Shown: piece after piece, positions 3,277 through 10,433 of the stretch
Position numbering within the stretch: the stretch's first letter is position 1
Layout: each line of letters opens with the position of its first letter
NCBI GenBank assembly: GCA_900319885.1
Contig: ONQH01000018.1
Span: forward strand, 1 to 11,131
From: Candidatus Avelusimicrobium ruminicola
GTDB lineage: Bacteria > Elusimicrobiota > Elusimicrobia > Elusimicrobiales > Elusimicrobiaceae
Direction of reading: 5' to 3'
Length of the DNA: 11,131 bases
Program-made: the position numbers and the translations under genes
Notes under the pieces: model-generated
What the model was told of the DNA's origin: nothing
What the model saw: only the letters and a program-made list of their open reading frames with translations
Database searches by the model: none

Positions 3277-3285
3277 ATTTGCACC

Positions 3286-3290
3286 GAGGG
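3286..3290 (+). promoter_or_regulatory. Ribosome binding site that sets the Sel1 gene start
   Basis: GAGGG lies 3 bp before the ATG at 3294, a short spacing. An in-frame TTG at 3279 upstream of it lies next to the terminator T run with no Shine-Dalgarno of its own. Starting at 3294 also gives a clean MKKFF membrane segment. Confidence 0.55.
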
Positions 3291-3293
3291 TTT

Positions 3294-4418
3294 ATGAAAA
3301 AATTTTTTACTGCCTTATTAGGTATTTTATTAACGGTAGGATTGTTTACGTTTGCTTTTTACCGCACGCCGGCCGAGCGTGCTTTTACGCAAAATTTCAA
3401 ATTAGCGCAAACGGGGGACGCGGCGGCCTCGCTGGCGGTGGCACACGCGTATGAAAAAGGAGAAGGCACTAAACTCAATAAAGCACAAGCGTTGGAATGG
3501 TACCAGCAAGCCGCGGCACAAGGGTCCAGCCAAGCCGCGTGGGAACTTTTTAATATTTACAGCAAAGGGGAACTAACACCGGCCGATTTGCCGGCGGCGC
3601 TTACGTATTTACAAGCCGCCGCGCAGGCAAATTTTCCGCAGGCTCAATATGAACTGGGCAATCAATATATGCAAGGGACGAATTTGCCGCAACATACAGG
3701 CCAAGCGTATTATTGGTATATGCAAGCCGCCGCGGCCGATTTTCGCCCGGCCAAAGCCAAGGTGGAGGCGCTGAGCACCGAAGACCCCACCCTCTACAAG
3801 GAACTCACCCGTTTTATGCAAGCGTTACAAACCGCCGAACCGGATCCGCAAACGCAATTAGAAATCGGCCAAAGTTACCGCTACGGAACACCCATTATGC
3901 AAGAGGATGCTACTGCGTTTAGTTGGTTCAAAAAAGCGTGGGAAAATTCCAATGAAGAACTTTCGCAGGCGGCGTATGAAATGGCTGACCAATATGCCAA
4001 AGGCGAAGGAGTAGATAAAGATGAAGCGATGGCCGCCCATTTATTTGCCAAAGCGGCTGAACTTAAAAATCCGGCGGCCCAATATCAAATGGGCATTGCG
4101 GCGTATACGGAAAATCCCGCCCGGTTTGAAGATGCCTTTGCCTGGTTTTCAAATGCCGCGGCCCAAGGCCATGCACAAGCGCAATATATGACAGGTTTTA
4201 TGCTGCTGCAAGGCCAAGGGACCCGTAAATCCGTGCCGCTGGCGATTCGCTTTTTTGAACAAGCCGCCGCACAAAATGATGCTTCTGCCCAATATGTATT
4301 GGGCCAAATCTATACGAAAGGATTGGGTGTAAAACGTAACGAATCGCAAGGCCGCGCCTGGTTGGAGAAAGCGGCAGAAAACGGAAATACAGCCGCCCAA
4401 GCCTTGTTAAACAATTAA
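3294..4418 (+). CDS. Membrane-anchored Sel1-repeat (TPR-like) protein
   Basis: The 374-residue protein starts with a signal anchor (about 4-23, MKKFFTALLGILLTVGLF). No clear signal-peptidase site follows, so it is probably held in the inner membrane with the rest outside the cytoplasm. From about 44 to the end it consists of roughly eight Sel1-like repeats of about 36 residues, plus a degenerate one near 153-185. Typical units are AHAYEKGEGTKLNKAQALEWY, YEMADQYAKGEGVDKDEA and YVLGQIYTKGLGVKRN, each continuing into an A-x-x-W-[YF]-x-x-A-A-x-x-G helix pair. Sel1 repeats form alpha-solenoids that serve as protein-protein scaffolds; they have no catalytic residues, and the partner cannot be told from sequence. 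The gene converges on the protease operon, with stop codons only 4 bp apart. Confidence 0.9.
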   Translation: MKKFFTALLGILLTVGLFTFAFYRTPAERAFTQNFKLAQTGDAAASLAVAHAYEKGEGTKLNKAQALEWYQQAAAQGSSQAAWELFNIYSKGELTPADLPAALTYLQAAAQANFPQAQYELGNQYMQGTNLPQHTGQAYYWYMQAAAADFRPAKAKVEALSTEDPTLYKELTRFMQALQTAEPDPQTQLEIGQSYRYGTPIMQEDATAFSWFKKAWENSNEELSQAAYEMADQYAKGEGVDKDEAMAAHLFAKAAELKNPAAQYQMGIAAYTENPARFEDAFAWFSNAAAQGHAQAQYMTGFMLLQGQGTRKSVPLAIRFFEQAAAQNDASAQYVLGQIYTKGLGVKRNESQGRAWLEKAAENGNTAAQALLNN

Positions 4419-4422
4419 AGAA

Positions 4423-5610
4423 TTATTTGTTTGAGTGCCGCCAATCGGGCAGAGGACCAAAAAGGTCTTTTTCGCTCAGTTCCGTTACTTCACCGGTAGA
4501 TACGTTAATGTCGTACGCTTTATAGGCGGTGGGTGTTTCGCGGGTCTGCGGACGGCGGATGGTTACGCGTAAAATATCGTTTTGTTCCAATTCAAAAAAC
4601 TGTTCCAAATGTTCCGGGTCTACGAGAGGATGTTTGTGTATACGCCCCAGTTTTTCCCCATTACGGAATTGCTCTACCGATATAATATACTCGTTAGGAT
4701 GTAAAAGGGCCACCGGCTTATTGAGCACGTGCATCCATTTCCCGGCCTGTGGCGAAGAATTTTTTTCGGCCCAGTTGGCCATCGTTTGCAAAATTTGCAC
4801 AGGGATAGCATAGTGCAGGTTGGGCATTTCCAATTGCACGTTCATTGGTAAATCGGCAAACCAGTCGTACATATGCAATTCCATGGCACTGTCATACCCC
4901 ACATAAATAGCATGCACCTTGCTGTCTTTGCCTAAAAGTGGGGAACCGCAAAAACCGCGTAATTCTTTTTCGGAAGTGTTTTGCAAGAATAATTTGAGCG
5001 GAGTGGCATACAAAACTTTCTGTTGCTGGGCCAGTAGAGGTTGGCCGCCCGTAAAGCCGGGGATATTAAGTTTTTCGCCGGCGGTGGGGGCGTGCTCTGC
5101 GGGTTTTAATACGTTCACAAACGGGAGAACTTCCTGTGGAATTTCAAATAGCGCAATATCCATGCCTTCGGGGTTTCCTCTAAAAACGGTTTTGATAGGT
5201 GCCAGGTGGAAAGTGTGCGGGGCGCTTTGTACTTTTACATAAGGGTCAAAGGAAATATTTTTCATCACATGGGAGGCTGTTACTCCCCACGTTTTTCCGT
5301 TGAGTTCAATGGCAAAGGCCGAGGCAGTTTCCGGCCGGACTACCGCGGTGGAACTTTGTACTTGGAAGGTAGAAGTAAAAGGGTGCCCTTGGCGGAGCGG
5401 GCGCGCGGGGAAGCGTTCTTTTACGTGTGTAATTTGCGTAAGTTTGCGGTCCAAATGCGTTTGTGCCAAGCGTGAAAGTTGTGCCACGCTGGGTTGACGG
5501 ACCACCCGGGTGGAAGGGGCTTTGCGCACGCGTTTTATTTTAGGCAGGGCATACACGCTGCTGCCCAAATGGCTTAAAATAAGTACAGAAAATAATAATT
5601 TTTTCATCAT
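4423..5610 (-). CDS. Exported trypsin-fold protease with Cys nucleophile, copy 3
   Basis: The 395-residue protein opens with a Sec signal peptide (about 1-21, MMKKLLFSVLILSHLGSSVYA), so it acts in the periplasm or outside. A basic segment rich in Arg and Lys follows (about 24-70). A chymotrypsin-like (PA clan, Trypsin_2-type) domain covers about 80-275: catalytic His114 in WGVTASHVM, Asp151 in GMDIALFEIP, and RGFCGSPLLG with Cys221 where serine proteases have Ser (G-x-S-G-S-P). Tyr236 lies in HAIYVGY after the Cys. A C-terminal module (about 295-380) is shared with the two upstream copies: SVEQFRNGEKLG, LEQFFELEQNDILRVTI, YDINVSTGEVTE. This copy has about 20 extra C-terminal residues. It lies 25 bp after copy 2, with only a weak AAGAGA ribosome site, and is last in the operon. 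The fold call is firm; Cys-protease activity is inferred, and an inactive or pure binding role is possible. Confidence 0.85.
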   Translation of the reverse strand: MMKKLLFSVLILSHLGSSVYALPKIKRVRKAPSTRVVRQPSVAQLSRLAQTHLDRKLTQITHVKERFPARPLRQGHPFTSTFQVQSSTAVVRPETASAFAIELNGKTWGVTASHVMKNISFDPYVKVQSAPHTFHLAPIKTVFRGNPEGMDIALFEIPQEVLPFVNVLKPAEHAPTAGEKLNIPGFTGGQPLLAQQQKVLYATPLKLFLQNTSEKELRGFCGSPLLGKDSKVHAIYVGYDSAMELHMYDWFADLPMNVQLEMPNLHYAIPVQILQTMANWAEKNSSPQAGKWMHVLNKPVALLHPNEYIISVEQFRNGEKLGRIHKHPLVDPEHLEQFFELEQNDILRVTIRRPQTRETPTAYKAYDINVSTGEVTELSEKDLFGPLPDWRHSNK

Positions 5611-5635
5611 ACGTTTTTCTCTTAAGTAAAAATAG

Positions 5636-6757
5636 TTAGGGCGTAACAGTGGTTACATCCCCCGTAGATACGTTTACCTCATACAGCACGGTTTGTGTTT
5701 GCTGGGTAAAGGGTTTAGACTGATTGATGGTAAGGCGCAAGACATCATTTTCTTGTAGTTCAAAAAATTGTTCCAAACGCCCCGGATCAATGAGCGGATT
5801 GTATTGAATAAAGCCTATTCTTTCCCCTTGGCGAAGCAATTCAATAGACTCAATAAATTCGGTAGGTTTAAGGAGCCCCACCGGATGCCCCAGGACAGAC
5901 ATCATTCTTCCTGTTTTTGATGCTGCGCCGGCTTCTGCCAGTTCCACCAGATCACTTAGTGCTTGGACAGGAATAGCCATATGAAAAGTCGGCATATTGG
6001 CAGTTACATCGCGGGGCAAATCTTGTAACCATCTTAAATGAGGCAATATCTCTTTGTTAACAAAGCCGATATATATGGCTTGTACTTTGTTGTTTTTTCC
6101 TAAAATGGGCGAACCGCAAAAACCGCGTAACCCCGCTGTGTCCGTTTTTTGAAGTAGTAATTTGGTGGGGGTGGTAATAAGCACTCTTTCTTGCGGGACA
6201 AAGAGGGCCTCCCCATTGGCAAAGCCGGGGATACTTAAAAATTCGCCGGTTATGGGCGCTCGTGCGGACGGTTCCAAAACCGTTACATGGGGGAGAATTT
6301 CAGGCGGAATTTCAAAGATAGCCAAATCTAACCCGTTGCTGTTGGAATTGCCGATGAGAAATTTTTGGATAGGGGCAAACACGGTTTGTGCGCCCGCTTG
6401 TATTTTGATATAAGGGGCTTGGCGAATACTGCTCATTACATGCCCGGCGGTAACCCCTATCGGTTTGCCGAATAACCGGATGGCAAACGCGCTGGCGGTT
6501 TCGGACTCCAAATCGTTAAAGCGTTGTATTTGAAAGGTGTACGGGAGCGGGTGGCCAGGTTTGGGATGTTTTGTAAATCCCGGGGTTGATAATTGGGTGA
6601 TGCGCCGAAGTTTTTGTTCAAATCGGCGTTTTGCTATTTGGGATATACGCGTTACGTTTTTGGGATGAATTTGCTTAAGCGCAGGACGCTTAATACCTCC
6701 CGCATCTAGCGGTATAAGTAAATTCGTAAACAGTATAAGCAAGAGAAATTTTTTCAT
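5636..6757 (-). CDS. Exported trypsin-fold protease with Cys nucleophile, copy 2
   Basis: The 373-residue paralogue sits in the middle of the three-gene operon. A signal peptide (about 1-19, ending LDA) is followed by a strongly basic stretch (about 23-52, with KRRFEQKLRRI). The protease domain shows His106 in GVTAGHVM, Asp144 in GLDLAIFEIP and Cys214 in RGFCGSPILG, with Tyr229 in QAIYIGF. The C-terminal module at about 295-370 has ESIELLRQGERIGF, FFELQENDVLRLTIN and LYEVNVSTGDV. Its last quarter is much closer to copy 1 than the rest, also at DNA level. The start codon comes 2 bp after the stop of copy 1 with no good Shine-Dalgarno (only GGGATAG), so translation is probably coupled. As in the other copies, the nucleophile position is Cys, not Ser. 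Natural substrate unknown. Confidence 0.85.
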   Translation of the reverse strand: MKKFLLLILFTNLLIPLDAGGIKRPALKQIHPKNVTRISQIAKRRFEQKLRRITQLSTPGFTKHPKPGHPLPYTFQIQRFNDLESETASAFAIRLFGKPIGVTAGHVMSSIRQAPYIKIQAGAQTVFAPIQKFLIGNSNSNGLDLAIFEIPPEILPHVTVLEPSARAPITGEFLSIPGFANGEALFVPQERVLITTPTKLLLQKTDTAGLRGFCGSPILGKNNKVQAIYIGFVNKEILPHLRWLQDLPRDVTANMPTFHMAIPVQALSDLVELAEAGAASKTGRMMSVLGHPVGLLKPTEFIESIELLRQGERIGFIQYNPLIDPGRLEQFFELQENDVLRLTINQSKPFTQQTQTVLYEVNVSTGDVTTVTP

Positions 6758-6759
6758 AA

Positions 6760-7887
6760 TTATCTATCCCATTTTTTTATTTCGCCGGTGGATACGTTTA
6801 CGTCATACAGTACGGTTTGTACCCGCTGGGAATAGGGTTTGGGTTGATTGATGGTAAGGCGTAAGACGTCATTTTCTTGCAGTTCAAAAAATTCTTCCAA
6901 TTTATCAAAATTCATAAACGGGTGGGCGTGAATTTCCTGTTGGAAAACCCCATTTCTTAATAACGCAACAGAAACTAATTGTTCCCGCGCGGCTAAAGGA
7001 CGAACAGTATGCCCTAATACTTTAAGCAGGGTAGGCGCGGGGGATACTGCGGCAGGTTCCACCTCGTGGGCCAGTTGCAGTACATGGGAAATGGGGGAGG
7101 CCGTATGCAGCGGAGATTGAATAGAAAGCCGTTCTTTGTTTAAAAGATCACTCCACGCGCTAGTGCGTATTTGTTCCAGGGAATATACGCCCACGTGCAA
7201 CCCCACCACTTCGCCATTGACTAATACCGGCGAGCCGCAATAGCCGGTGGCTTCGCGCCGCAGTTGGTCTCTAAGAAAGATACGGTGCGGCCCCACAAAT
7301 AACACGTCTTCGGAAGGCAAGAAAGTATAGTTTCCTCGTACAAAGGCCGGAGATTGCGTTTGCGTAGCGGGCAGCAGTGCTTGCTTGGAAGGAGACAGCA
7401 CTTCAATATGCGGTAAAATTTCTTGCGGAATTTCAAAGATGGCTACGTCGTTGCCGATTTTGTTACCAATATGCCACGACGGGATAGGGGCCAAAATGGT
7501 TTCTGTTCCCTTTTTAATTTTAATAAAAGGGTTTGAACTGATATTATGCATTACGTGTGCGGCGGTTACTCCCCACACGCGTCCCTGTATGTTGAGCGCA
7601 AAAGCAGAGGCGGTATGTCGTCCGTCTGTCGCAATTTGCACTTCAAACACTTTTTTGCGGTAGCGGAAGGCGTTTTTCAAAAAAGCAGTATTGATCTCGC
7701 GCATTTGGGCCGCGCGGGAAGCAAAATCGTGTAGCCGGGCAGTAGCCGCACGGTTGGCTAAAGCGGAACCGGAAACCACAGAGCGTGCCTTTGAAACGGC
7801 TCGTTGCACCCGAATCGGCTTAATGGCCTGAACGGGCAACGCAAAAATAACCAGCAAGGCTACCAGAAATAATTTTTTGTTTCTCAT
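6760..7887 (-). CDS. Exported trypsin-fold protease with Cys nucleophile, copy 1
   Basis: This is the first gene of the protease operon, 375 residues. The signal peptide (about 1-21, MRNKKLFLVALLVIFALPVQA) has a good VQA cleavage site, followed by a basic Arg/Ser/Ala stretch to about 65. The protease domain has His111 in WGVTAAHVM, Asp147 in GNDVAIFEIP and Cys217 in TGYCGSPVLV. His231 lies in VVGLHVGV, exactly 14 residues after the Cys; picornaviral 3C proteases carry a His in a similar G-[IM]-H-V-G-G strand that reads P1 Gln. The C-terminal module (about 295-370) contains FFELQENDVLRLTIN and LYDVNVSTGEI. No Shine-Dalgarno precedes the ATG, and the upstream promoter would start the RNA at or next to the ATG. 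Fold and export are well supported; catalysis and specificity are inference. Confidence 0.85.
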   Translation of the reverse strand: MRNKKLFLVALLVIFALPVQAIKPIRVQRAVSKARSVVSGSALANRAATARLHDFASRAAQMREINTAFLKNAFRYRKKVFEVQIATDGRHTASAFALNIQGRVWGVTAAHVMHNISSNPFIKIKKGTETILAPIPSWHIGNKIGNDVAIFEIPQEILPHIEVLSPSKQALLPATQTQSPAFVRGNYTFLPSEDVLFVGPHRIFLRDQLRREATGYCGSPVLVNGEVVGLHVGVYSLEQIRTSAWSDLLNKERLSIQSPLHTASPISHVLQLAHEVEPAAVSPAPTLLKVLGHTVRPLAAREQLVSVALLRNGVFQQEIHAHPFMNFDKLEEFFELQENDVLRLTINQPKPYSQRVQTVLYDVNVSTGEIKKWDR

Positions 7888-7894
7888 TACTTAT

Positions 7895-7923
7895 ACTATA
7901 GGGTTTTAGAAGAAAACTCACAA
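7895..7923 (-). promoter_or_regulatory. Promoter of the protease operon, probably leaderless
   Basis: On the minus strand the -35 is TTGTGA (7923-7918), the spacer is 17 bp, and the -10 is TATAGT (7900-7895). The expected transcription start, about 7 nt after the -10, falls at 7888-7889, one or two bases before the ATG at 7887. No Shine-Dalgarno is present, which fits a leaderless mRNA. Inferred from consensus and spacing. Confidence 0.6.
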
Positions 7924-7972: not shown

Positions 7973-7997
7973 AAAAAACCCGGCTATTAAGCCGGGT
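7973..7997 (-). terminator. Intrinsic terminator of glyA
   Basis: On the minus strand ACCCGGCT (7997-7990) pairs perfectly with AGCCGGGT (7985-7978) around loop TAAT, followed by a T run (complement of the A run at 7973-7978). It lies 24 bp beyond the glyA stop and separates glyA from the protease operon. Confidence 0.9.
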
Positions 7998-8021: not shown

Positions 8022-9266
8022 TTACAGTTCTGGGTACAACGGGAATTTTTGCAAAAACTCCTTTACTTGTTTGGCAATCCCCGCTAAATAATTCTCATCC
8101 GCCGCGTGCGTAAGTGCGTCATCAATAAACGCGGCTACTTGCACCATATCATTTTCTTTCATCCCGCGCGTAGTGATAGCAGGCGTGCCAATACGTAACC
8201 CACTAGTGACAAACGGTTTTTCCGGGTCAAAGGGAATGGTGTTTTTGTTGGCGGTAATGCCGGCTTTATCCAGTGCGGCTTCTGCCACTTTTCCCGTCAT
8301 TTTTTTACTACGCAAATCTACGCACATTACGTGACAATCTGTGCCGCCGGCTACTAGGCGGTAGCCGCGTTTTTTTAGTTCGTTAGCCAACGCTTGCGCG
8401 TTAAGTTTAATTTGATGTTGATACGTCTTAAACTGCGGTTTTAACGCTTCGCCGAAACAAACCGCTTTGCCGGCAATCACGTGCATAAGTGGGCCGCCTT
8501 GCGTGCCCGGGAACACGGCCGAGTTAATGGCTTTGGCTAAACTTTCTTTGCACAAAATAAGTCCACCGCGTGGCCCGCGAAGCGTTTTGTGCGTGGTGGT
8601 GGTCACTACGTCGGCATACGGGACGGGAGACGGATATTCGCCCGCCGCTACCAGGCCTGCGTAGTGGGCAATATCGCACGCTAAATACGCGCCGCACGAG
8701 TCGGCAATTTCGCGCAGTTTTTTCCAATCAAAAATACGGGAATAGTTGGATGCCCCGGCCATAATGAGTTTGGGTTTGTGTTCCCGCGCCAATTTAGCGG
8801 CTTCTTCGTAATCAATTTCTTCCGTGTCGGGGCGGACGTTCATAGCAATAATGTTGTAGAGTTTGCCCGAAAAATTTAGTGGATGTCCGTGCGTTAAGTG
8901 CCCGCCGTGGGAAAGGTTTAACCCCAGCACGGTGTCACCGGGTTTTAACAGTGCAAAATAAACCGCCATATTGGCTTGTGCGCCGGAGTGCGGCTGCACG
9001 TTGGCGTGCTCGGCCCCAAAGAGTTTTTTGGCGCGTTCAATGGCTAACGTTTCCACTTGGTCTACAAATTCGCACCCGCCATAGTAGCGTTTGGACGGGT
9101 AGCCTTCCGCATATTTATTGGTTAAAATAGAGCCTTGTGCTTGCATAACCGCCAGAGAAGTAAAATTTTCTGAAGCGATTAGTTCCAGTTTTTCGCGTTG
9201 GCGGTTTAATTCTTTAGAGACGGCGGCAAAAACTTCCGGATCGGTTTGGGCTAATTGGGGGTACAT
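8022..9266 (-). CDS. glyA: Serine hydroxymethyltransferase
   Basis: This PLP enzyme interconverts serine and glycine while loading one-carbon units on tetrahydrofolate in the cytoplasm. The 414 residues match the bacterial family (E. coli 417). Landmarks are LIASENFTS (29-37), [15 protein letters not shown] (50-64), [11 protein letters not shown] (89-99), the SHGGHLTHG loop (119-127), DIAHYAGL (198-205) with the Asp that contacts the PLP ring, and [15 protein letters not shown] with Lys227 as the Schiff-base lysine. [14 protein letters not shown] lies near the C-terminus. All key residues are present. The start is set by a strong AAGGAGA (9278-9272) 5 bp before the ATG. It is a single-gene unit with its own terminator, divergent from the DHS-family gene. 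Confidence 0.98.
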
Positions 9267-9344: not shown

Positions 9345-9350
9345 GAGGTG
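9345..9350 (+). promoter_or_regulatory. Ribosome binding site that sets the DHS-family gene start
   Basis: GAGGTG lies 9 bp before the ATG at 9360. An in-frame GTG at 9348 overlaps this site and has no Shine-Dalgarno of its own, so ATG 9360 is preferred. Confidence 0.65.
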
Positions 9351-9359
9351 AAATCAAAA

Positions 9360-10433
9360 ATGGCAAAACTAACAAAGAAAGACTTTCTCAAAAACACAAT
9401 CAAACACATTGATATGAAAAAGTACAATGTGGTGCCGATGGTGGAAGCGTTTGAGAATATGGCCTACGCCTCCCGCGAAGTGGCCCGGGCAAGTAAAATT
9501 TACAACATGATGCTTAACGATAAAAATTGCTCCGTTATCTTGTGTATTGCGGGCTCTTTGATTTCGGCCGGTATGAAAAAAATCATCGTAGATATGATTC
9601 AAAATCACATGGTAGATGCCATCGTATCCAACGGGGCCAACATTGTAGACCAAGACTTTTTTGAAGCGCTCGGTTTCAAACACTACATTGGTACTCCGTA
9701 CAATCAAGACGATAACCTCTTGCGCGACTTACACATTGACCGCATCTACGATACGTATATTGATGAAGATCAACTCAAAGTATGCGATGAAACCATCTAC
9801 AAAATTTGCAACGCTTTAGAGCCGCGCCCGTATTCTTCCCGCGAATTTATTTGGGAAATGGGTAAATGGCTTGAGAAAAAAGGCAAAGGCAAAGATTCTG
9901 TAGTTTACAACGCCTACAAATACGGGGTACCGATATTTGTGCCGGCTTTTAGCGATTGCTCTGCCGGGTTTGGTTTTGTCATGCACCAGGCTGAAAATCC
10001 TGCCGCGCATATTTCCATTGACAGCGCCAAAGACTTCTTGGAACTGACCAAAATCAAAATGAAAGCCAAAGAAACCGGGCTTATGATGTGGTCCGGCGGC
10101 GTGCCGAAAAACTTTGCGCAAGATACCGTAGTAGCGGCCGAAGCGTTAGGGGCCGAAATCCCCATGCACAAATACGCGGTACAAATTACTGTGGCTGACG
10201 TGCGCGACGGGGCATTATCCGGCTCTACCTTAAAAGAAGCTTCCAGCTGGGGCAAAGTATCTACCGCGCTGGAACAAATGGTTTACGGCGAATGCACCAC
10301 GCTTATCCCGCTCATCATTGGTTACGGATACCACAAAGGTGCTTGGAAAAAACGCAAAGCCACCAACTACGTTAAATTCTTACAAGAAGAAGACGCCAAG
10401 GCGGCTAAAGCCAAAACCAAAAAAACCAAATAA
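9360..10433 (+). CDS. Deoxyhypusine synthase-family protein (bacterial DHS-like)
   Basis: From ATG 9360 the protein has 357 residues with the deoxyhypusine synthase fold throughout. SLISAGMKKIIVDMIQNHMVDAIV (66-89) matches the family's N-terminal nucleotide-binding segment. PIFVPAFSDCSAGFGF lies at 191-206, and GGVPKNF (246-252) matches the family's G-G-G-V-x-K-H. KEASSWGKVS (292-301) carries the active-site Lys299, equivalent by motif to Lys329 of human DHS, and Glu293 matches human Glu323. By my hand alignment human His288 corresponds to Asn251 and human Asp316 to Leu286, so the polyamine pocket differs. True DHS modifies eIF5A, which bacteria lack; bacterial relatives are thought to act in polyamine synthesis such as homospermidine formation, so substrate is open. 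The C-terminus is a Lys-rich tail (KAKTKKTK). The next gene starts 8 bp later and is probably co-transcribed. Confidence 0.88.
   Translation: MAKLTKKDFLKNTIKHIDMKKYNVVPMVEAFENMAYASREVARASKIYNMMLNDKNCSVILCIAGSLISAGMKKIIVDMIQNHMVDAIVSNGANIVDQDFFEALGFKHYIGTPYNQDDNLLRDLHIDRIYDTYIDEDQLKVCDETIYKICNALEPRPYSSREFIWEMGKWLEKKGKGKDSVVYNAYKYGVPIFVPAFSDCSAGFGFVMHQAENPAAHISIDSAKDFLELTKIKMKAKETGLMMWSGGVPKNFAQDTVVAAEALGAEIPMHKYAVQITVADVRDGALSGSTLKEASSWGKVSTALEQMVYGECTTLIPLIIGYGYHKGAWKKRKATNYVKFLQEEDAKAAKAKTKKTK

What the first reader, a model, noticed from the sequence alone, without database searches (positions are those of the whole stretch)
4423..7887. Three tandem exported trypsin-fold proteases with Cys in place of the catalytic Ser
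In all three paralogues the nucleophile motif is G-[FY]-C-G-S-P where bacterial Trypsin_2-type proteases have G-x-S-G-S-P (Cys217, Cys214 and Cys221 in transcription order). His (TA[SAG]HVM) and Asp (D-[IVL]-A-[IL]-F-E-I-P) are retained at normal spacing. Conservation of Cys in copies that have diverged elsewhere argues for selection rather than decay. Cys nucleophiles in this fold are best known from viral 3C-type proteases; a bacterial exported three-gene set is unusual. Activity is inferred. The Cys could instead mark binding proteins, and an exported Cys nucleophile would need a suitable redox environment.
Basis: partly seen in the sequence, partly recalled or inferred. Interest (0 to 1): 0.78.

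Follow-up and report, generated by a model that had tools for sequence, protein, structure and literature searches.

The report
Bacterial cysteine-type trypsin-fold protease family
A group of gut bacteria carries families of exported, trypsin-shaped proteins in which the usual active-site serine is replaced by cysteine, a swap otherwise known mainly from RNA virus proteases.

Summary
The window holds three same-strand genes for exported trypsin-fold proteins with His, Asp and Cys at the triad positions; that Cys is the only Cys in each protein. An AlphaFold model of the middle copy is confident and matches solved trypsin-fold proteases.

The three belong to a family of the same genus (Elusimicrobiaceae, probably Candidatus Avelusimicrobium). 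Of 143 members read, 138 have Cys at the nucleophile position and none has Ser, at 21% mean column identity. Among 140 aligned rows, His is lost only in members without the Cys. Outside the genus, 12 of 28 related domains have Cys, all within very long reading frames, and 15 have Ser. In one 5,734-residue frame, 5 of 6 cysteines are nucleophiles. The tree needs one Ser/Cys change.

Genes lie in head-to-tail runs of up to 7, most often between glyA and a Sel1 gene.

Best reading: active exported cysteine peptidases derived from a bacterial serine protease. Activity, substrate and active-site distances are untested. The PA-clan classification paper I saw in passages lists cysteine families only from positive-strand RNA viruses.

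The parts
6760..7887 (-). Copy 1 (first transcribed, P0001, 375 aa): signal peptide, trypsin-fold domain, C-terminal beta domain; triad H111 (7555-7557), D147 (7447-7449), C217 (7237-7239); His231 at the S1-pocket position
   Evidence: fold by homology to copy 2; not modelled itself
5636..6757 (-). Copy 2 (P0002, 373 aa): triad H106 (6440-6442), D144 (6326-6328), C214 (6116-6118); Tyr229 at the S1-pocket position
4423..5610 (-). Copy 3 (P0003, 395 aa, start at 5610 or 5607): triad H114 (5269-5271), D151 (5158-5160), C221 (4948-4950); Tyr236 at the S1-pocket position
   Evidence: fold by homology to copy 2; not modelled itself
7978..7997 (-). Intrinsic-terminator-like hairpin with T run after glyA: would separate the array from the upstream gene
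   Evidence: consensus match; 9 found in the region against a mean of 6.6 in shuffles, so weak as statistics; 8-pair stem with 6 GC pairs
7895..7923 (-). Sigma-70-like promoter TTGTGA-17-TATAGT, ending 7 nt before the first ATG
   Evidence: 5 found in the region against a mean of 4.8 in shuffles; only its position is suggestive
5639..5920 (-). C-terminal all-beta domain of copy 2 (residues 280-373), no match to a solved structure at E<=0.001
8022..9266 (-). glyA (serine hydroxymethyltransferase), one border of the most frequent array site in the genus
3279..4418 (+). Sel1-repeat protein, other border of that site; convergent, 4 nt from the end of copy 3

Best explanation
The three genes form one transcription unit of exported PA-clan (trypsin-fold) peptidases that use Cys instead of Ser as nucleophile. 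They belong to a family that arose once from a bacterial HtrA-like serine protease in Elusimicrobiota and then multiplied at recurrent chromosomal sites. Shown: the sequence features, the family-wide conservation, the predicted fold of copy 2, the single Ser/Cys change on the tree, the synteny. Inferred: His activates the Cys thiolate, which attacks peptide bonds outside the cytoplasm, where the anoxic gut or rumen and the scarcity of other cysteines keep it reduced and free of disulphides. Also inferred: copies with His in the G-I-H-x-G motif after the Cys (copy 1) prefer Gln or Glu before the cut, as 3C-type and sobemovirus proteases do; copies with Tyr, Phe or Glu there (copies 2 and 3 have Tyr) cut elsewhere, so that an array yields several specificities. 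Least certain: whether they digest food protein or process envelope proteins. I lean to envelope or surface-protein processing, because HtrA-type proteases exist beside them in nearly all genus genomes.
For: Cys in 82 of 85 members, Ser 0, from 20 genomes. In a second set not used to build the 82-row profile, Cys 56 of 58, Ser 0. Mean column identity is 21%, yet His, Asp and Cys are among the 11 nearly invariant positions. His is lost in 3 of 5 Cys-less rows and 0 of 135 Cys-bearing ones (Fisher p 2e-5, not corrected for shared ancestry). 77 of 140 mature proteins have no other Cys; Cys elsewhere is 0.18% against 1.06% in 320 other frames of the same loci. In a 5,734-residue relative, 5 of 6 cysteines are nucleophiles. 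AlphaFold pLDDT 82.8, pTM 0.82; Foldseek best match 2.8e-8, a sobemovirus serine protease. Profile against PDB: Deg2 1.8e-8, with the Cys column on the Deg2 Ser. One Ser/Cys change on the tree, in 92% of 200 bootstrap trees. dN/dS 0.19 and 0.16 for copies 1 and 2 against their orthologues. S1 position: His 81, Tyr 21, Phe 15, Glu 13 of 140. HtrA-type matches in 64 of 66 genus genomes; the four whose nucleophile I read have Ser.
Against: No activity data. Triad geometry not measured, and only one copy was modelled. Ten of 140 rows keep His and Cys but have Asn for Asp, and five lack the Cys, so part of the family may be inactive. The branch that separates Ser from Cys has modest support (94/59). 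dS values of 2.5 and 1.8 are near saturation, and the third pair gave no dS. Exported proteins tend to be Cys-poor anyway (general knowledge), so the comparison with 320 frames that include cytoplasmic proteins overstates the contrast. Promoter and terminator signals are hardly more frequent than in shuffles.
Confidence: 0.74

Rival explanations
1. Inactive trypsin-fold binding proteins (pseudoproteases) that kept the fold and use the cleft to bind peptides or partners; the Cys is structural.
For: Five of 140 rows lack the Cys; a clade with Asn for Asp holds the three Cys-less genus members put on the tree. No activity known.
Against: Triad kept in a family of 21% mean column identity and in 12 domains of giant proteins outside the genus. 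Loss of His is seen only together with loss of Cys. A structural Cys would not be expected to sit exactly at the nucleophile position while other cysteines are scarce.
Confidence: 0.12
2. Acyl-enzyme transferases rather than hydrolases: the thioester intermediate is passed to an amine, so the enzymes attach or cyclise exported proteins (a sortase-like or ligase role on a trypsin fold).
For: A Cys nucleophile favours aminolysis over hydrolysis (known for engineered Ser-to-Cys subtilisins; recalled, not looked up). Export, many paralogues and recurrent genomic arrays would fit surface-protein modification.
Against: Nothing specific points to an acceptor site; viral 3C-type Cys enzymes of the same fold are hydrolases (passages).
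Confidence: 0.1
3. The domain was captured from an RNA virus 3C-type cysteine protease, not evolved from a bacterial serine protease.
For: G-x-C-G and G-I-H-x-G motifs and frequent Arg at Cys-4, 91 of 140 (the 3C side of the motif comparison is recalled). Pfam Peptidase_C3 matches 10 of 82 members, best 9e-4. A viral trypsin-fold protease ranks first in Foldseek against the PDB, and the viral library gives lower E-values than the PDB (libraries differ in size).
Against: Trypsin_2 matches 68 of 82 members, best 1.1e-11. HtrA-type chains lead the profile search. The best-ranked viral structures with a name telling the type are serine proteases (sobemovirus, barnavirus). Ser relatives occur in the same family of bacteria and in the window's own genome.
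Confidence: 0.03

Closest known systems
HtrA/Deg and Trypsin_2 serine proteases (MEROPS S1C; Pfam PF13365, NCBIfam TIGR02037)
   Same: Predicted fold, order and spacing of the triad, export; best profile match in the PDB is Deg2; 68 of 82 members match Trypsin_2 at E<=0.1.
   Different: Cys in place of Ser; no PDZ domain recognised (all-beta C-terminal domain without a PDB match at E<=0.001); window copies below the Pfam cut-off; often arranged in arrays.
Viral 3C/3C-like cysteine proteases (MEROPS C3, C4, C30)
   Same: Trypsin fold with His-Asp-Cys; His at the S1-pocket position in 81 of 140 rows, which in viral enzymes reads Gln/Glu at P1 (PMC6357015, passages seen).
   Different: Cellular, exported, own genes, no polyprotein in the window; Peptidase_C3 below cut-off in the window copies; the tree links them to bacterial Ser proteases, though no viral sequence was on that tree.
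Glutamyl endopeptidase / V8-type, Spl and sobemovirus S39 proteases
   Same: Similar structures to the model; Glu-reading S1 pocket suggested by the same His position (recalled for V8; passages for sobemovirus).
   Different: Ser nucleophile; other hosts; single genes or viral polyproteins (recalled).

Membership tests
PA clan (trypsin/chymotrypsin fold) | Double beta-barrel fold | tested here: met
   AlphaFold pLDDT 82.8; Foldseek PDB 268 matches at E<=0.001, the 50 listed being trypsin-fold proteases or zymogens; only copy 2 was modelled
PA clan (trypsin/chymotrypsin fold) | His, Asp, nucleophile in that order at the fold's active-site positions | tested here: met
   Sequence order and profile alignment to Deg2; secondary-structure positions
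PA clan (trypsin/chymotrypsin fold) | Triad side chains within hydrogen-bond distance | not testable with these tools
   No model coordinates in the Python box
HtrA / S1C serine proteases | Ser nucleophile | tested here: not met
   Cys in the three window copies; Cys 138 of 143, Ser 0 of 143 in the genus family
HtrA / S1C serine proteases | C-terminal PDZ domain | tested here: not met
   No Pfam PDZ match in window copies at E<=1 or among the 12 families hit by 82 members at E<=0.1; C-terminal model has no PDB match at E<=0.001. A very diverged PDZ is not excluded
Pfam Trypsin_2 (PF13365) | Score above gathering cut-off 27.6 bits | tested here: not met
   Window copies 1, 2, 3: no match, 16.8 and 18.3 bits; best of 82 relatives 1.1e-11
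Viral 3C cysteine protease (C3, PF00548) | Cys at the nucleophile position of a trypsin fold | tested here: met
Viral 3C cysteine protease (C3, PF00548) | Sequence family score above cut-off (22 bits) | tested here: not met
   12.4 bits for copy 1, no match at E<=1 for copies 2 and 3
Viral 3C cysteine protease (C3, PF00548) | Encoded in an RNA virus polyprotein | tested here: not met
   Separate bacterial genes; no relative of copy 2 in phage records or viral contigs
Any peptidase family | Peptide-bond hydrolysis through the Cys | not testable with these tools
   Needs purified protein

The most novel reading that the evidence does not exclude
A cellular lineage of PA-clan cysteine peptidases, independent of RNA viruses, made by one Ser-to-Cys switch in Elusimicrobiota. 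It comes in two genetic forms: tandem exported single-domain genes at recurrent sites (this window's genus) and giant polypeptides with three or more intact Cys-protease domains (sister genus). The giant form would cut itself into separate enzymes after export, a bacterial counterpart of the viral 3C polyprotein.
Probability: 0.22. Interest if true: 0.88.

Novelty: new variant of a known kind. Interest (0 to 1): 0.73.

Why it matters
The PA clan holds some of the best-studied enzymes. Its Cys forms are listed from positive-strand RNA viruses only in the classification paper I saw (PMC6524800, abstract and passages: nine cysteine families, all viral). A cellular Cys branch with Ser relatives, one of them in the same genome, makes it possible to test directly what a Ser-to-Cys switch costs and gains, and whether it needs an anoxic extracellular space. 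It would also add exported thiol peptidases, with predicted and varied cleavage preferences, to little-known gut and rumen bacteria.

Tried and rejected
Mobile-element or phage origin: no relative of copy 2 in 50,697 phage records or in viral contigs (two stretches matched a pattern, neither a relative); no relative of copy 3 in 72,556 plasmid records. PHROGs gives one weak match of copy 1 to a protease family (0.015). Neighbours at the recurrent sites look like housekeeping genes (most identified by eye from sequence only). Rejected.

Anti-phage defence: PADLOC gives a fold-level match of copy 2 (RT-Protease_XI, 0.0013), a Sel1-repeat match of the neighbour to PtuA (4.2e-7) and a weak Csn2 match of the Band_7 protein (0.0093). 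I take these as shared folds or repeats. Rejected.

PDZ-type C-terminal domain: the Foldseek matches to Deg2-Deg9 and Deg9 entries that span it have rmsd above 11; modelled alone it has no match at E<=0.001. Left as an unassigned all-beta domain.

Cys as disulphide partner: the window copies have no second Cys. Rejected for them, as an intramolecular bond.

Decay: dN/dS 0.16-0.19 for two copies and kept triads speak against it for the window. It does apply to a minority elsewhere.

Not done: a profile search beyond the phylum (340 genomes, at most five candidates scored per genome); the single genome-contig scan used one protein and found two loci. Absence from other phyla is not claimed. Literature: ten searches, of which seven asked about Cys in this fold or in these bacteria and three about the organisms. 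None of the titles and abstract starts listed described a cellular PA-clan cysteine family, but I opened only three papers, in passages (PMC6524800, PMC6357015, PMC8035907). MEROPS and most subscription journals could not be searched.
Full report
What was checked. The triads are H111/D147/C217, H106/D144/C214 and H114/D151/C221. Each window protein contains one Cys in its whole length, the one at the nucleophile position. Signal peptides were read by eye.

Where it comes from. The window is contig C105 of a 1.2-Mb genome in 176 contigs, 83% complete. The named relatives found are two metagenome genomes filed as uncultured Elusimicrobium sp., RUG486 and RUG14410 (RUG for rumen genome is recalled). 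Their contig lengths, 46,374 and 66,993, equal those of G009:C74 and G063:C8. The genus is probably Candidatus Avelusimicrobium (my inference; NCBI places that genus in Elusimicrobiaceae, and passages of its description were seen in PMC8035907). Genome G102 has 1,643,562 bases in one contig, which I recall as the size of E. minutum Pei191.

Family extent. With one protein as query, 20 of 37 genus genomes and 0 of 24 genomes of another family in the order match at E<=0.001. With the 82-row profile at E<=1e-12, 57 of 340 phylum genomes match: 44 of the genus (of the 66 genus genomes), 3 of genus g12, 7 of genus g15, 2 of the class and 1 further off. At E<=1e-6, 56 of 66 genus genomes match; the extra ones are weak hits that may be HtrA-type proteases, which I did not read. 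The window's genome has seven profile matches: the three window copies, three more Cys members and one Ser protein of 275 aa.

Conservation. The first set has 85 frames from the window plus 40 fetched stretches of 20 genomes: His 81 (2 gaps, 1 Ser, 1 Gln), Asp 78 (6 Asn, 1 gap), Cys 82 (1 each His, Met, Tyr), Ser 0. Three fragments were then dropped, leaving 82 rows. The second set, not used for that profile, came from 20 stretches of 13 other genomes and loci of five further contigs of the window genome, two of which (C156 and C101, weak Trypsin_2 hits) gave no family frame. It has 58 family frames: His-Asp-Cys 51, His-Asn-Cys 5, His-Asn-Ala 1, Gln-Asp-Trp 1 (the Ser protein of contig C162, present there twice, is not counted). 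Over the 140 rows (82 + 58), His and Cys are both kept in 135; of the five without Cys, three have also lost His. Fisher p is 2e-5, uncorrected for ancestry: the three Cys-less genus members placed on the tree sit in one clade with the Asn variants. This pattern is what a catalytic pair predicts.

Cysteine avoidance. 77 of 140 mature proteins have no Cys besides the nucleophile. Elsewhere Cys makes up 0.18% of residues against 1.06% in 320 other frames over 200 aa from the same stretches. The control includes cytoplasmic proteins, so part of the gap may be a general feature of exported proteins.

Structure. The AlphaFold model of copy 2, from eight sequences, has mean pLDDT 82.8 and pTM 0.82. 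Foldseek finds solved trypsin-fold proteases, first a sobemovirus serine protease (2.8e-8), then exfoliative-toxin, Esp, trypsin, Spl and V8 entries. In the viral library barnavirus proteins and sobemo-like serine proteases lead. The family profile matches Deg2 at 1.8e-8, and the printed alignment puts the Cys on the Deg2 Ser. Residues 280-373 form an all-beta domain (pLDDT 86.7) without a PDB match at E<=0.001. Triad distances were not measured.

Origin of the Cys. I read 28 relatives of the protease domain from 13 genomes outside the genus: 12 with His-Asp-Cys, 15 with His-Asp-Ser, one with Ala at the nucleophile position, whose His and Asp positions also look lost by eye. One weaker domain was dropped by the E-value cut of 1e-6, and two hits (G191:C60, G209:C59) were not read. 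The Cys domains lie in genus g12 and in G296, all within frames of 1,077 to 5,734 residues. One g12 frame, in L139, holds both a Cys and a Ser domain, and G102 also has a separate Ser protein (L154). On a tree of 71 domains (42 that I chose for spread from the 82 genus rows, the 28, and the window genome's Ser protein), with the nucleophile column removed, Cys and Ser are separated by one change. 92% of 200 bootstrap trees agree; the branch has support 94/59. The tree is unrooted; that Ser is ancestral follows from its generality in the clan. No viral sequence was included.

Giant relatives. G102 has a frame of about 3,965 residues with a signal-peptide-like start and four domains in its C-terminal part, three with Cys and the degenerate one; 3 of its 9 cysteines are nucleophiles. 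G103 has a 5,734-residue frame with five domains; 5 of its 6 cysteines are nucleophiles. Where the G103 protein starts, and whether it is exported, I did not settle. At E<=0.01 Pfam finds only Trypsin_2 in the two G102 proteins and one G101 protein, and also a phosphatase domain in G296.

Genome arrangement. Over the window plus 60 fetched stretches there are 63 runs of family genes: 28 of one gene, 11 of two, 9 of three, 13 of four, 1 of five, 1 of seven. The 35 runs of two or more are all head-to-tail. 19 runs lie exactly between glyA and the Sel1 gene, 7 more touch one of these. Other recurrent sites are visible. These stretches were fetched because they hold the family, so the figures describe its surroundings, not its frequency. 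In 12 genus genomes without a match at E<=1e-12, no family gene follows glyA in the stretch fetched; 4 of 12 have Sel1 and Band_7 there, 4 have Band_7 only, 4 neither. In the window a terminator-like hairpin follows glyA and a promoter-like pair ends 7 nt before the first ATG; copies are 2 and 25 nt apart. The counts of such signals are near chance, so only their positions speak.

Selection. Against the RUG486 orthologues, copies 1 and 2 show dN/dS 0.19 and 0.16 (dS 2.5 and 1.8, near saturation); copy 3, paired with the remaining gene, gave no dS. Protein identity of copies 1 and 2 is 51% and 63% while DnaK is 99.5%, the part of SHMT held 94.0%, Band_7 92.9% and Sel1 81.0%. They evolve fast but under constraint.

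Specificity. The position that carries the S1-pocket His in viral enzymes (Cys+14/15, G-I-H-x-G) is His in 81, Tyr in 21, Phe in 15 and Glu in 13 of 140. In viral trypsin-fold proteases that His reads Gln or Glu at P1, and is replaced in viruses with other specificities (PMC6357015, passages). Copy 1 has His, copies 2 and 3 Tyr. Equivalence to the viral position rests on motif, spacing (recalled for 3C) and the sub-threshold C3 match that spans 214-233 of copy 1.

Other proteases. TIGR02037 (DegP type) matches in 64 of 66 genus genomes at E<=1e-10, in none above its cut-off. The nucleophile was read in four of these loci and is Ser in all four.

Compared with what is known. [quoted passage not shown] Ten literature searches showed no cellular example in the titles and abstract starts listed. 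NCBIfam shows no model for the family: at E<=0.1 the 82 members hit serine-protease models (at most 23 members for one model) or single unrelated ones. It is not a member of HtrA (Ser not met, PDZ not found) nor of C3 (score and host not met), but should work most like the latter on a chassis like the former.

Verdict. A real, conserved and, as far as these searches show, undescribed bacterial family of trypsin-fold proteins with Cys at the nucleophile position, very probably active peptidases. Function in the cell is open.

Noticed in passing
L155:3766-15660; L157:1990-19191: Sister-genus genomes carry frames of about 3,965 and 5,734 residues with four and five trypsin-fold domains; 5 of the 6 cysteines of the second are nucleophiles.
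   Followed up: partly
L048:8420-9646, L052:8196-9422, L044:7993-9207, L069:5796-7022, L050:7457-8611: One paralogue line has Asn for Asp in several members and includes members without Cys: a pseudoprotease-leaning clade, kept mostly inside arrays whose other genes have full triads.
   Followed up: partly
window 7887-7923 (-): A TATAGT box ends 7 nt before the first ATG, so the array mRNA may be leaderless.
   Followed up: no
window 9348-10433 (+): Deoxyhypusine-synthase family protein (Pfam DS, 9.4e-93) in a bacterium, next to glyA in many of the fetched genus stretches (cluster c3).
   Followed up: no
L056-L061, L067, L071: A single family gene sits beside a protein of about 1,500-1,800 aa with a signal-peptide-like start; the one member scanned has no Pfam match at E<=0.01 (cluster c13).
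   Followed up: no
L064:528-1560: A family copy split over two frames, apparently broken.
   Followed up: no
A2 alignment, position 20 of copy 2: Gln directly after the likely signal-peptide site in 114 of 140 rows, though not in the three window copies; meaning unknown.
   Followed up: no
G000:C162 (L188): The window's genome also has a 275-aa Ser protease of the same fold; DegP-type matches occur in 64 of 66 genus genomes, none above the cut-off.
   Followed up: partly
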